Source: Rhodoferax sp.
Lineage (GTDB): Bacteria; Pseudomonadota; Gammaproteobacteria; Burkholderiales; Burkholderiaceae_C
Assembly (NCBI RefSeq): GCF_025356155.1
Contig: NZ_JANXUQ010000072.1
Span: forward strand, 1 to 36,259
Length of the DNA: 36,259 bases
Direction: 5' to 3'
Under the pieces are notes generated by a model. It was not told the DNA's origin. It ran no database searches and saw nothing but the letters and a program-made list of their open reading frames with translations. A program made the translations under genes and the position numbers. Below are positions 12,432-28,324 of the stretch, piece by piece (positions within the stretch are counted from its first letter, which is position 1; each line of letters begins with the position of its first letter).

Positions 12432-12486
12432 TGCTATGAATATGTGAGCGTAGTAGTCATATTTTACGAGGGCTACAGCTTGTTTT
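12432..12486 (+). repeat. Dispersed ~55-bp repeat in the uppP leader (copy B)
   Basis: This non-coding copy aligns without gaps to the copy at 27684-27738. It shares the left GCTAT core and, after the variable middle, 17 of 18 bases across CATATTTYACGAGGGCTA. It ends about 5 bases before the uppP ribosome-binding site, so it forms most of that gene's immediate leader. Confidence 0.6.
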
Positions 12487-12503
12487 TACTTAAGGAGTTG
12501 GTT

Positions 12504-13328
12504 TTGGATATTGCATTGCTGATCAAGGTCACGATCATGGGTATTGTGGAGGGCTTGACTGAGTTTTTGCCCATTTCGTCCACCGGGCACTTGATTTTGG
12601 CGGGCGCCCTGATGGGTTTTGACGATGACAAGGCCAAGGTATTTGATATTGCCATCCAGACCGGCGCCATTTTGGCGGTCATCATCGTTTACTGGCAAAA
12701 GATCCGTGACACCGTGGTCAACCTGCCCTCCAGCAAACAGGCGCAGCGTTTTGCCATCAACGTGGTGATCGGTTTCATGCCGGCCGGCATCCTGGGCTTT
12801 ACCGTCTACAAGGCGATCAAGGCCCATTTGTTCAACCCCGGTGTGGTGGCCGGCGCGTTTATCGTTGGCGCCTTCATCATTTTGTGGGTGGAGAAAATTG
12901 CCAAACCCGTGCCCCGCATCCACACCATCGACGACATGACGCCCATGGACGCCCTCAAGGTCGGCCTGGTGCAGTGTCTGGGCATGATCCCAGGTACCAG
13001 CCGCAGCGGGGCTACCATCATTGGCGGCATGCTGCTGGGCCTGTCGCGCAAGGTGGCGGCTGAGTTTTCGTTCTTCCTGGCCATACCCACGCTGGTGGGG
13101 GCGGGCCTCTACAGCCTGTACAAGGAGCGCGCCATCCTGTCTATGGCTGACGTGCCGATGTTTGCCCTGGGTTTTGTGGTGTCGTTTATCAGCGCCTGGC
13201 TGTGCATACGCTGGTTGCTGCGCTTTATTGCAAACCACAGTTTTGTGGGCTTCGCGTATTACCGCATCGCCTTTGGCATCGTGGTGCTGGTTACCGCTTG
13301 GACCGGCACGGTGCATTGGGCGGCTTAG
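12504..13328 (+). CDS. uppP: Undecaprenyl-diphosphatase
   Basis: Integral inner-membrane phosphatase (BacA family) that converts undecaprenyl diphosphate to the monophosphate, recycling the lipid carrier for peptidoglycan and other glycans; its overproduction gives bacitracin resistance. Both signature motifs are intact: [14 protein letters not shown] at residues 16-29 (the two glutamates and the histidine) and PGTSRSGAT near residues 163-171. The TTG at 12504 is taken as the start because AAGGAG lies 6 bases upstream and the protein then opens LDIALLIKV, as family members do after their initiator Met, with 274 residues (E. coli 273). The open frame extends far upstream antisense to the DUF4139 gene, but that part is not protein-like. 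The stop lies 11 bases from the convergent hydrolase. Confidence 0.94.
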
Positions 13329-13339
13329 GCCGGGTTGAT

Positions 13340-14191
13340 CTAACGTGAAGGTGACCGCGCAGGGTTGGCGCGCTTACTCTCGTTTTCGCTGTCCATATTG
13401 CGCAGCGCAGCCTCGATGGCGGCGCCGGTGGCGACGGGTTTTTCCATGGGAAACAGGTGGCTGCCATCCAACATCAGAATGCGGCCTTTTGTGATCTTTT
13501 CGGTCATGGCCATACCGACCTGTCGCATCTCGTGCGAAGCCAGCCCCCCGATAAACGTTACCGGGCACTTGACCGGATGGCGAGCCAGCAGCCGTTCCAG
13601 GTTATCGGGCAGCGTGTTGTAGAACTGAGTCTCCACCGCGCGGTCAAAGCTCAGCACGCGTTTGCTATCTGCCTCCAGCGTGCCGTGGGTTACGTAGTCC
13701 ATCAGCACGCCGTCGTCCCATTTGGCGAATGCCTTTTTGTGGCGGAAGTGTTCGTAGGCCGCTTGCACCGACGGCCAGGTGTTGCGCCGCTTTTGGCTGA
13801 CGGCACCCGGTGACAGTGAGCCAAACATCTGTGTCGTCTTCATGACGCCCAGCGCGGTAGAGCGCCAGCCGCCCACGATGGGCGAGTCCACCAGCACCAC
13901 ACCGCGTGCCAACTCGGGGTTACGGGACGCCGCCATCAGGCTTAGGAATCCGCCCAGCGAGTGACCGACCAGCCAAGCCGGTTCGCCCGTTTTGGCGGTC
14001 ACGTCCTGCGCAAAATCCAGCAACTGTTGCACCACGTTCGGCCAGTTGTTGCTGACGGGGTAGCGTGGGTCGTGTCCGTATTTTTCAATCGCCTTAACGG
14101 CAAAACCACGCGAACGCAGGTCTTTGAACAAGACCTTGTACGTGCTGGCCGGAAAACTGTTGGCGTGCGAGAAAATGATGGTGGACGACAT
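13340..14191 (-). CDS. Alpha/beta-hydrolase fold protein
   Basis: A 283-residue cytosolic alpha/beta hydrolase. The nucleophile elbow is GHSLGG with S78, the N-terminal IIFSHANSFPAS provides the oxyanion-hole region, and LDGSHLFPMEKP near residues 240-252 carries the probable catalytic histidine. The likely acid is in the VTFIGG strand region but is not certain. The C-terminus (ENESKRANPARSPSR) is a short charged tail. It lies 24 bases downstream of the Anbu protease gene on the same strand and is probably co-transcribed with it. The substrate (ester, lactone or similar) cannot be told. Confidence 0.85.
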   Translation of the reverse strand: MSSTIIFSHANSFPASTYKVLFKDLRSRGFAVKAIEKYGHDPRYPVSNNWPNVVQQLLDFAQDVTAKTGEPAWLVGHSLGGFLSLMAASRNPELARGVVLVDSPIVGGWRSTALGVMKTTQMFGSLSPGAVSQKRRNTWPSVQAAYEHFRHKKAFAKWDDGVLMDYVTHGTLEADSKRVLSFDRAVETQFYNTLPDNLERLLARHPVKCPVTFIGGLASHEMRQVGMAMTEKITKGRILMLDGSHLFPMEKPVATGAAIEAALRNMDSENESKRANPARSPSR

Positions 14192-27204: not shown

Positions 27205-27223
27205 AAATTTTTTTAGTGTGTTT

Positions 27224-27260
27224 GTGGGACAGATCTTTAGCTCTGACCCCAACTGACTGG
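27224..27260. repeat. Short dispersed repeat (REP-like) in the suhB-trmJ gap
   Basis: GGGACAGATC, then TAGCTCTGACCCCAACTGAC. It shares GGGACAGA, TAGCTCTG and CCAACTGA, in the same order and orientation, with 29131-29172. This pattern resembles REP-like elements seen widely in proteobacterial intergenic DNA. It occupies part of the 181-base divergent control region of suhB and trmJ. Confidence 0.45.
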
Positions 27261-27385
27261 AAGAACTGACGCTCCGCTGGCGATGCAGGCGGCGACAATA
27301 CAGCCATTTTAACGGCTGGACCTTGGTTGCGCACTCTATTGGCTTCAATTCGCTTTCAGTCTGGCCCTCTTTCCCCCATTTCCCG

Positions 27386-28324
27386 ATGCAGACTCGCTTC
27401 ATCCTGATCAACACCAGCCATGCCGGCAATGTGGGCGCCGCCGCCCGCGCCATTAAAACCATGGGGTTTGACGACCTGGTGCTGGTGGCACCGCGTTGGG
27501 CCAATGTGCTGCGCCGGGAAGAAACGATCCAGCGGGCTAGCGGCGCGCTAGACGTGCTGGACAAGTGTCGCATTGTCGACACGCTGGATGAGGCGCTGGA
27601 GGGCATGACCCACCTGTGCGCCACGGCCATGACCCCGCGCGACTTCGGGCCGCCCACGGTGGCGCCGCGTCAACATTTTGAATCGCTATCAAAAACAGAG
27701 CGGGCTAACCATATTTCACGAGGGCTAGAGGCAGATTTGTCTCAAACCGTTCGGGAAAGTGAGCCCCTGGAATCTGCAGCGGCCCCACAGCAGGGGATTG
27801 CATTTTTGTTTGGCTCCGAGCGCTTTGGCATGCGCAACGAAGACGTCTACCGCTGCCATGCCTGCCTGAGTATCCCCAGCAACCCGAAGTTTGGTTCGCT
27901 CAATATTGGCGCGGCACTGCAAGTGGTGGCGTATGAATGGCGGCTGGCTTTGGGTGGGTTCAGCGAGCAACTCGCCGCCGGGACGTGGGGGCCGCAATTT
28001 TCCGCCGGGCAGCCCCAAGGGAAATTAGCCCCACGCGACGGAAAATCCGGAGCCCCTTCCCCGGATGGGGGCAGCGACCCGCAGAGCGGCGGAGCGTGGG
28101 GGCCACAACTAGCCGACGCAGCCCAAGTGGCCGGTATGCTGACCCATCTGGAGCAATCCTTGGTGGCGCTGGGTTTCCTGGACCCGGCCGCCCCCAAGAA
28201 GCTGATGCCGCGCCTGAACCAGCTCTTCAATCGCGCAGGCGTCACGCAGGAAGAAATCCACATCCTGCGGGGCATTGCCAAGGCCATATTGCAGCAGTCG
28301 GCCGACGGGGGCGGCAACAGGTAG
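27386..28324 (+). CDS. trmJ: tRNA (cytidine/uridine-2'-O-)-methyltransferase TrmJ, enlarged by repeats
   Basis: SPOUT-class enzyme that methylates the ribose 2'-O of position 32 in tRNA anticodon loops, using S-adenosylmethionine bound in a deep trefoil knot. The start at 27386 gives [28 protein letters not shown], the family N-terminus; the knot motifs [12 protein letters not shown] and [22 protein letters not shown] are intact, and the C-terminal helical part ends with a TrmJ-type [10 protein letters not shown]. The protein is 312 residues, about 65 more than E. coli TrmJ. The excess lies in two insertions: residues 98-130, containing a copy of a ~55-bp dispersed repeat, and residues 198-245, a Gly/Pro/Ser-rich stretch with a repeated WGPQ. 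Both fall at domain surfaces and leave the frame open, so the enzyme is probably functional. Confidence 0.94.
27684..27738 (+). repeat. Dispersed ~55-bp repeat inside trmJ (copy D)
   Basis: The reference copy of this repeat. Left end CGCTATCAAAAACAGAGC, variable middle, right end ACGAGGGCTAGAGGCAGATT. It encodes [18 protein letters not shown] in the TrmJ frame, between the conserved [15 protein letters not shown] region and the FLFGSERFG motif, where relatives have only a short loop. Its A+T content and codons (TCG CTA TCA AAA ACA) differ from the flanks. Confidence 0.75.
27981..28110. repeat. G+C-rich repeat insertion inside trmJ (copy 2 plus partial tandem)
   Basis: ACGTGGGGGCCGCAA near 27983 recurs as GCGTGGGGGCCACAA near 28094, and the interval includes GGAAAATCCGG and GGATGGGGGCAGCGACCC. 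On the minus strand 28061-28105 resembles the repeat at 26243-26274. The frame stays open, giving two WGPQ motifs in TrmJ. Confidence 0.55.

What the first reader, a model, noticed from the sequence alone, without database searches (positions are those of the whole stretch)
12432..27738. A ~55-bp dispersed repeat with fixed ends and a variable centre, gap-free in three copies
Copies at 12432-12486, 18367-18421 (minus) and 27684-27738 align over 55 columns with no gap. The ends are strongly conserved (16/18 and 19/21 between the mutS and trmJ copies; 17/18 around ACGAGGGCTA between the uppP and trmJ copies) while about 16 central bases are free to differ. A fourth, shorter relative lies at 6873-6925. 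Fixed length with a free centre is unusual for a decaying repeat and suggests a constraint such as end recognition or spacing by a protein, or a folded RNA.
Basis: seen in the sequence. Interest (0 to 1): 0.7.

Follow-up and report, generated by a model that had tools for sequence, protein, structure and literature searches.

The report
Chromosome-wide DNA signature of Comamonadaceae
The repeat is one of roughly five hundred copies per genome of a fixed-length DNA signature that many Comamonadaceae bacteria carry, in dialects that differ between species, and it behaves like an address label read by a protein rather than like decaying junk.

Summary
The three copies, and the fourth at 6867-6930, belong to a family with a fixed layout, RCTMY-N7-RKAGC-N20-GSGCYR inside a ~66-bp block. 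The own genome has 507 exact-layout matches against 1 for the reversed pattern. In 1.2 Mb from three genomes, N7/N20 gives 61, 53 and 57 hits and every other spacing at most 2. The layout recurs in many Comamonadaceae genera, patchily.

New here: 37 gap-free copies shared by two species differ at 1.7% of core sites against 14% of flank sites (p 3e-18). Dialects separate two pairs of species at seven orthologous genic sites. Sampled copies are evenly spaced and rare on one 305-kb second replicon. Paired bases do not covary, though the copies can fold. In mutS, murI and algR the motif arose without length change; in glcD and kdtA with inserted bases.

Best reading: a duplex-DNA recognition site of an unidentified protein, kept site by site. 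The likeliest role, inferred only, is self-recognition of the DNA-uptake type; a chromosome-organising site and a domesticated REP are rivals. Two likely members are in print as "spaced motifs" (PMC5217627).

The parts
12430..12495 (+). motif copy between a minus-strand open frame (10899-12347) and uppP
   Evidence: 48.0 bits to profile R1; open frame; uppP named from the recalled [14 protein letters not shown] signature, read from the DNA
18359..18421 (-). motif copy in frame inside mutS, in place (same length as in most motif-poor relatives)
   Evidence: 49.5 bits; MutS by phmmer; segment lengths and codons
27681..27747 (+). motif copy in frame in a linker of trmJ
   Evidence: 58.3 bits; TrmJ by phmmer; relatives
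6867..6930 (+). diverged motif copy, antisense inside a response-regulator gene
   Evidence: 38.4 bits; receiver domain by phmmer
16926..19631 (-). mutS, host gene of a copy (longest open frame; start not settled)
27386..28324 (+). trmJ, host gene of a copy
6480..7304 (-). response regulator, host gene of a copy

Best explanation
The repeat is a chromosome-wide recognition site, read as double-stranded DNA by one diffusible protein that is not identified here. The site is two short inverted repeats (GCTAY-N7-RTAGC and, in the general Comamonadaceae form, GCGCTT-N7-AAGCGC) set 5 bp apart, followed by GAGGCC and an AT-rich tail, ~66 bp in all. SHOWN, in the genomes and stretches sampled: fixed geometry; hundreds of copies; even spacing; scarcity on one second replicon; core bases conserved copy by copy; dialects at orthologous sites; no pairing covariation; gain without length change in three conserved genes. 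INFERRED: a recogniser exists, and when its preference shifts the sites follow by point changes. INFERRED and only the likeliest role (about 0.35): the motif marks own-species DNA for preferential handling, as uptake sequences do in Neisseriaceae and Pasteurellaceae, so that biased uptake and recombination build up and keep the sites. The next likeliest role is chromosome organisation (about 0.25), which is also a recognition site. The confidence below is for the recognition-site reading as a whole, not for the uptake role.
For: Geometry: 61, 53, 57 hits at N7/N20 against 0-2 at 44 other spacings in three genomes. Family-wide exact layout: 507 in own, 399 in G006, up to 629, against 0-35 for the reversed pattern over 299 genomes. 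Maintenance: 37 gap-free orthologous copies of G006 against G033 differ at 8 of 481 core sites, 72 of 481 free sites and 212 of 1507 flank sites, p 3.1e-18; the same direction starting from G033 (9 of 494 against 217 of 1549) and for coding and noncoding copies apart. Dialects: position 44 is G in 99% of own copies, C in 90% of G006 and 87% of G033 copies; at seven orthologous genic sites it is G in 7 of 7 (G000) and 7 of 7 (G011), and C in 7 of 7 (G006) and 7 of 7 (G033). Between G006 and G033 the 13 differences at position 42 all go one way. Spacing: gap CV 0.53-0.68 against ~1.0 simulated. Second replicon of G001: 2 copies in 260 of 305 kb against 36 in 300 kb of chromosome. No covariation at 13 pairs. 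In place: murI and algR windows have 35 aa in all genomes recovered (own plus 7, and own plus 6); mutS 129 nt in 9 of 11 motif-rich and 13 of 19 other genomes.
Against: No binding protein was found. ComEC is present in 35 of 35 and GspH/FimT-like genes in 35 of 35 genomes with and without the motif, so nothing tested separates the two groups; two motif-rich genomes (G152, G306) even have shorter open frames over comEC (573, 582 aa). Some copies came by insertion (glcD, kdtA). Single copies fold more stably than shuffles in two genomes. The directional positions were picked by eye from 66; by my arithmetic only position 42 (13 of 13) survives a Bonferroni correction, position 47 (C to T 10, T to C 1, other 2) does not. 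G000/G011 and G006/G033 are related pairs, so shared ancestry explains part of the dialect table. Short-tract gene conversion between copies could mimic maintenance; whole-copy conversion is made unlikely by the retained free positions. G006 and G033 spacing samples cover the same two regions. One second replicon was tested. A 66-bp site would be several times longer than known uptake sequences (recalled).
Confidence: 0.6

Rival explanations
1. It is a REP-type element: a palindromic repeat spread long ago as single-stranded hairpins by a RAYT (Y1 transposase), now vertically inherited and partly domesticated.
For: Two inverted repeats, an RTAG motif before the second one, hundreds of copies, the noncoding ones close to gene 3' ends (median 14-16 nt), intragenic copies as in REP families (PMC3733652). 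Copies of G006 and G033 fold more stably than shuffles. A RAYT-like gene occurs in 33 of 35 Comamonadaceae genomes searched. Insertion-type sites exist.
Against: The RAYT-like gene is present in motif-rich and motif-poor genomes alike, and in ~5.7-kb stretches around it a motif occurred in 2 of 16 motif-bearing genomes, within ~160 nt. No pairing covariation. Length 66 bp rather than 20-40. Core conservation at orthologous sites, even spacing and gains without length change are not expected of a transposon. Rare on one second replicon.
Confidence: 0.2
2. It is a chromosome-organising site: binding site of a nucleoid or segregation protein whose even spacing along the chromosome matters.
For: Even spacing, scarcity on a second replicon, core conservation in coding and noncoding copies, both orientations.
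Against: 15 of 37 genomes of the same genus have no hit of profile R1 (with strict filters), so it is dispensable. No protein found.
Confidence: 0.25
3. It is an RNA element: terminator, processing site or mRNA-stabilising hairpin.
For: Hairpins can be drawn and mean folding energy beats shuffles in two of three genomes; noncoding copies often lie just 3' of genes.
Against: No covariation at 13 pairs in three genomes; RNAalifold finds almost no common structure; copies inside genes are sense and antisense (7/6, 16/10, 12/12); left arm of the second repeat relaxed in the own genome; no Rfam match in the window.
Confidence: 0.07
4. It is an inactive miniature transposon (MITE) family whose copies are simply old and decaying.
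For: Extra bases in glcD and kdtA of motif-bearing genomes against 3 of 4 motif-poor ones.
Against: Neutral decay predicts equal divergence of core and flank; observed 1.7% against 14%. No length change in mutS, murI and algR. No terminal inverted repeat is seen in the consensus; target duplications were not looked for.
Confidence: 0.04

Closest known systems
DNA uptake sequences (DUS of Neisseriaceae, USS of Pasteurellaceae)
   Same: Many copies per genome, in genes and between them, with lineage dialects (PMC3630211, passages seen); molecular drive has been proposed to build such sites (title of a reference seen there). Scarcity in foreign DNA is recalled, and suggested by the title of PMC7371117 (listing).
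   Different: Bipartite and ~66 bp long rather than ~9-12 bp cores (recalled); here about one copy per 5-10 kb; no uptake or receptor evidence in Comamonadaceae. Searches returned no paper; the 12 of 41 papers listed do not, by title and abstract start, treat this family's motif.
GTAG-tagged REPs and RAYTs (PMC3733652, PMC8266576)
   Same: Palindromic, dispersed, often beside gene 3' ends, some in frame inside repair genes including UvrD-type helicases.
   Different: Longer, no pairing covariation, not flanking the RAYT-like gene in 14 of 16 genomes, one fixed layout shared across genera.
'Spaced motifs' ATAGCT(N)22CAAAAG of Polaromonas naphthalenivorans and GCTTAT(N)5AAGCG of Acidovorax ebreus (PMC5217627, Table 7)
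   Same: By spacing and letters I take these as parts of the same motif in two other genera (inference); 125 and 114 copies, mostly intergenic. The paper also says Rhodoferax ferrireducens T118 had the most motif pairs (140).
   Different: The paper lists them as potential novel motifs of unknown role; in the section read it does not join them into one family, show dialects or test maintenance.
Rickettsia palindromic elements
   Same: Repeats found in frame inside genes (PMC3733652 section 15).
   Different: Described there as insertions; here three genic sites changed with no length change.

Membership tests
DNA uptake sequences | Strong genomic over-representation of one motif | tested here: met
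   507 against 1 reversed in the own genome
DNA uptake sequences | Lineage dialects | tested here: met
   position 44 in four genomes at seven sites; frequencies in three genomes
DNA uptake sequences | Poor in foreign or extrachromosomal DNA | tested here: met
   2 in 260 kb against 36 in 300 kb (one replicon of one species); 4 stretches of viral contigs with the strict pattern
DNA uptake sequences | Presence tracks competence genes | tested here: not met
   comEC 35 of 35 and GspH 35 of 35 irrespective of motif; both are weak markers of competence
DNA uptake sequences | Enhances DNA uptake or transformation | not testable with these tools
   needs an experiment
GTAG REP / RAYT | Short 20-40 bp palindrome with GTAG end | tested here: not met
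   ~66 bp conserved block; R (A or G) TAG precedes the second inverted repeat
GTAG REP / RAYT | Hairpin maintained (pairing covariation) | tested here: not met
   but copies of two genomes fold better than shuffles
GTAG REP / RAYT | Copies flank the RAYT gene | tested here: not met
   2 of 16 motif-bearing genomes
MITE / insertion element | Copies are insertions with clean empty sites | tested here: inconclusive
   extra bases in glcD and kdtA; no length change in mutS, murI, algR; trmJ, xdhA, uvrD and response-regulator linkers vary too much to tell
MITE / insertion element | Presence/absence polymorphism between close relatives | tested here: inconclusive

The most novel reading that the evidence does not exclude
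A long bipartite self-recognition sequence that marks the chromosomes of a whole bacterial family in species dialects, kept by a still unknown DNA-reading protein: a third, independent invention of DNA self-marking beside those of Neisseriaceae and Pasteurellaceae, or a chromosome-address system without a known counterpart.
Probability: 0.45. Interest if true: 0.9.

Novelty: new variant of a known kind. Interest (0 to 1): 0.75.

Why it matters
If right, a large environmental family (Acidovorax, Rhodoferax, Polaromonas, Ottowia, Diaphorobacter and others) has a genome-wide signal that, in the papers searched, is not described as such. The dialects give natural variants for finding the reader protein and for asking how hundreds of sites change together. 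It would also explain part of Pfam DUF1010 as motif read from the opposite strand, and it suggests a Comamonadaceae origin for an integron cassette seen on many plasmids.

Tried and rejected
Rfam search of the window: no match. RAYT as driver: same presence in motif-rich and motif-poor genomes, rarely near copies. ComEC and GspH/FimT as markers: no discrimination. RNA structure: RNAalifold gave almost no common structure and paired positions do not covary; the folding energies of single copies speak the other way. mutS as an insertion: rejected by equal segment length and protein homology. The first alignment of copies was spoiled because minus-strand loci were not turned; one search replaced it. 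A first per-copy divergence count for G033 had an orientation error in the inverted region and was replaced. The core positions were chosen, so repeats the test with an objective rule (at least 95% uniform across copies). My checkpoint note says 17 motif-rich genus genomes; recounting one search gives 16 of 37. In one search the kdtA part failed for eight of nine genomes, so kdtA rests. The last paper search, for the motif's own letters, found no paper. A replication-strand bias suspected from the listing is not supported: copies in G006 and G033 stretches are on both strands. On recheck I mended several counts and added the results against my reading; I left the odds as they were.
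Full report
OBSERVATION. The three reported copies exist and align without gaps. A sequence-only profile (R1) made from 27 copies, the four of the window among them, finds 27681-27747 +, 18359-18421 -, 12430-12495 + and 6867-6930 + at 58.3, 49.5, 48.0 and 38.4 bits; the next match is 6.7. In the whole genome (5.09 Mb, 318 contigs) AYGAGGGCTAGAGGC with up to two mismatches occurs 419 times against 8 for the reversed pattern.

ANATOMY. Of 77 copies found in 423 kb, 61 (above 35 bits, with full flanks) were stacked: the conserved block spans profile positions ~4-68, with little beyond it. 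The layout is GCTAY (6-10), seven AT-rich bases, RTAGC (18-22), a partly conserved middle (GCATATT, 30-36), then ACGAGGGCTAGnGGCC (39-54) and nATTT. In 80 copies from 80 loci of named records, mostly Comamonadaceae with some Burkholderiales, Rubrivivax and other beta-proteobacterial assemblies, the general form is GCTAT-N7-ATAGCTGCTnGCGCTT-N7-AAGCGCTAGAGGCC-nATTT: two inverted repeats, each around a 7-base spacer, 5 bases apart (the pattern that fetched them, fixed many of these letters). Changing either spacer by a base abolishes the hits: 61, 53 and 57 matches at N7/N20 in three genomes against at most 2 at any of 44 other combinations.

DISTRIBUTION. With profile R1, 16 of 37 genomes of the genus reach 80 or more hits (82 is the scoring cap), one has 17, five have 1-2 and 15 have none; 0 of 24 genomes from other families of the order have any (strict filters). 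R1 leans to the own dialect, so the fixed-layout pattern was run over 299 genomes of the family: 507 in the own genome, 399 in G006, up to 629 elsewhere, and 58 genomes with 50 or more by my count of the table, against 0-35 for the reversed pattern. Presence is patchy inside genera (for example 247, 288, 5; 128, 7, 1; 292, 344, 2). Contig lengths identify G033 as Rhodoferax bucti and G001 as Comamonadaceae bacterium OS-4.

CONTEXT. With a simple gene finder written for this purpose (it misplaced the gene at uppP), 60 of 77 own copies are intergenic, 13 lie wholly in genes and 4 overlap gene ends. In G006 and G033, 26 of 66 and 24 of 69 are in genes, in both orientations; noncoding copies lie a median 14-16 bases from gene 3' ends. 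Copies are more evenly spaced than chance: gap CV 0.62, 0.64, 0.53 and 0.68; 0-0.08% of 5000 simulations matched for coding and noncoding share, and 0.02-1.3% of uniform ones, were as even. The two genomes were sampled over the same two regions, so there are two independent regions, not four. On the second replicon of G001 there are 2 copies in 260 of 305 kb against 36 in 300 kb of its chromosome by a profile trained on G033 (2 against 23 by exact layout).

COPIES ARE MAINTAINED. Aligned parts of G006 and G033 are 86.2% and 83.6% identical in the two regions. Of 66 and 69 copies, 54 and 55 had alignable flanks, 37 and 38 of them without gaps. Core positions, defined as at least 95% uniform across G006 copies, differ between orthologous copies at 8 of 481 sites; positions below 50% at 72 of 481; flanks at 212 of 1507 (p 3.1e-18). 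Starting from G033 it is 9 of 494, 81 of 456 and 217 of 1549; coding and noncoding copies agree when taken apart. The partner scores as a copy in 37 of 37 and 37 of 38. Left out: 17 and 17 gapped pairs, and 12 and 14 copies without alignable flanks. On a second look at those 26, 17 lacked a matching flank on one or both sides; in the other 9 a partner copy lay nearby in 6 and none in 3. By the coordinates, one of those 3 is at a rearranged place, one in a block ~640 bases longer in G006, and one in a stretch of similar length without a recognisable partner, so none is a clean empty site.

DIALECTS. Position 44 is G in 99% of own-genome copies and C in 90% and 87% of G006 and G033 copies. At seven orthologous genic sites (mutS, trmJ, kdtA, xdhA, algR, murI and a response regulator) it is G in 7 of 7 sites of G000 and 7 of 7 of G011, and C in 7 of 7 of G006 and 7 of 7 of G033; in G014 it is G at 4 of the 5 sites found. 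The other genomes were seen only at mutS and trmJ. Between G006 and G033, the 13 differences at position 42 are G for A or T (10) or A for T (3), never the reverse; position 47 changes C to T ten times, T to C once and otherwise twice; 27, 40 and 5 lean one way, while free positions mostly stay. These positions were picked by eye from 66; by my arithmetic only position 42 survives a Bonferroni correction. Retained free positions mean the sites changed base by base rather than by copying whole elements. Shared ancestry within the two pairs explains part of the pattern.

IN PLACE OR INSERTED. For mutS 30 loci were compared (40 of 41 genomes matched). The segment is 129 nt in 9 of 11 motif-rich genomes (the other two hold a further insertion) and in 13 of 19 others; motif-rich genomes match the consensus at 31-41 of 56 letters, the others at 12-33. 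The second codon is CTA in 11 of 11 motif-rich genomes and in 1 of 19 others, which otherwise use other leucine codons. The own protein aligns over this stretch to the MutS of entry 5yk4 with a one-residue gap. murI (own, four motif-rich and three motif-poor genomes) and algR (own, four and two; four cross-hits to another regulator dropped; the G014 algR holds no recognisable motif) show no length change. glcD is 45-57 bases longer in G006, G033 and G014 than in G031 and G017 (and about as much against G005), starting at a native TTGCTnC-like stretch; G014 and G000 carry the whole motif, in G006 and G033 its right part is eroded, and G000 and the motif-poor G034 carry a further GC-rich repeat. 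kdtA is 15-23 aa longer in motif-rich genomes than in 3 of 4 motif-poor ones. In trmJ, xdhA, uvrD and the response regulator the linker length varies too much to decide; matA gave no comparison. Both routes therefore occur.

NOT A FOLDED RNA OR A RAYT ELEMENT. At 13 paired positions in three genomes the number of Watson-Crick pairs exceeds the expectation under independence by at most 4.3 copies. Against this, mean folding energies in G006 and G033 beat mononucleotide shuffles (-17.1 against -13.8 and -12.7; own -13.6 against -12.7), as expected of any site with complementary blocks. The Y1 transposase family is found in 33 of 35 motif-rich and motif-poor genomes; in ~5.7-kb stretches around it a motif occurred in 2 of 16 motif-bearing genomes (some open frames printed there are on the wrong strand, so distances were judged from the family match).

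FUNCTION. What is shown is a fixed-layout DNA site kept copy by copy, with dialects. Among roles, an uptake-type self-signal fits abundance, dialects, even spacing, scarcity on a second replicon, and gains inside conserved genes. It is weakened by the length of the site and by the lack of any gene that tracks the motif. Chromosome organisation fits spacing and scarcity on a second replicon, but many relatives lack the motif. I give about 0.35 to the uptake role, 0.25 to chromosome organisation and 0.2 to a domesticated REP.

WHAT IS IN PRINT. PMC5217627 (passages and section 13 read) lists ATAGCT(N)22CAAAAG in Polaromonas naphthalenivorans (125 copies) and GCTTAT(N)5AAGCG in Acidovorax ebreus (114) as potential novel motifs; by spacing and letters I take both as parts of this motif. 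PMC3733652 (abstract, sections 5, 15 and 16) describes REP families, some inside repair genes; Acidovorax, Polaromonas, Rhodoferax, Delftia, Variovorax and Comamonas do not occur in its held main text. PMC12306157: none of six related terms occurs. PMC3630211 was seen in passages, PMC8266576 in outline and abstract, PMC2755013 in passages; other papers only in listings. Searches for Comamonadaceae with uptake sequence and natural transformation, naturally transformable with Comamonadaceae, and the motif's own letters returned no paper. The library is open-access only, so absence there is weak. Lengths of known uptake sequences are recalled.

Noticed in passing
L448:2352-2642 (public plasmid record, class 1 integron): A motif copy (first block imperfect) lies inside a DUF1010 open frame between dfrA12 and aadA2; the cassette name gcuF is recalled. 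The 66-base query matched 1750 plasmid records, and 23 of the 30 listed are annotated DUF1010 there. A Comamonadaceae origin of the cassette is inferred.
   Followed up: partly
L450-L479: Pfam DUF1010 (PF06231) matches overlap the motif (within two mismatches) in 27 of 30 loci, often by only the first ~25-30 profile positions: the start of this family looks like motif read from the opposite strand.
   Followed up: yes
L450, L463 and neighbours (G293 C1 near 625-630 kb and 2177-2180 kb): Clusters of DUF1010-type units with repeated cassette-like ends, many carrying the motif; they look like chromosomal integron cassettes.
   Followed up: no
28073-28105 and 26243-26275: A second dispersed GC-rich repeat sits inside TrmJ (about aa 219-263) and, inverted, at 26243-26275; TrmJ aa 219-263 match many other places in these genomes, and a similar stretch follows the motif in glcD of G000.
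   Followed up: no
31951-32058 and 32276-32383: A 108-nt inverted repeat, 80% complementary, 217 nt apart, between called genes.
   Followed up: no
L012, L013, L015, L019, L030: A further repeated sequence like ACCCAATNTGGGTATAA lies a few tens of bases downstream of several motif copies.
   Followed up: no
L163, L164 (mutS of G021 and G030): An extra in-frame insertion of 32 aa (96 nt) directly beside the motif in mutS.
   Followed up: no
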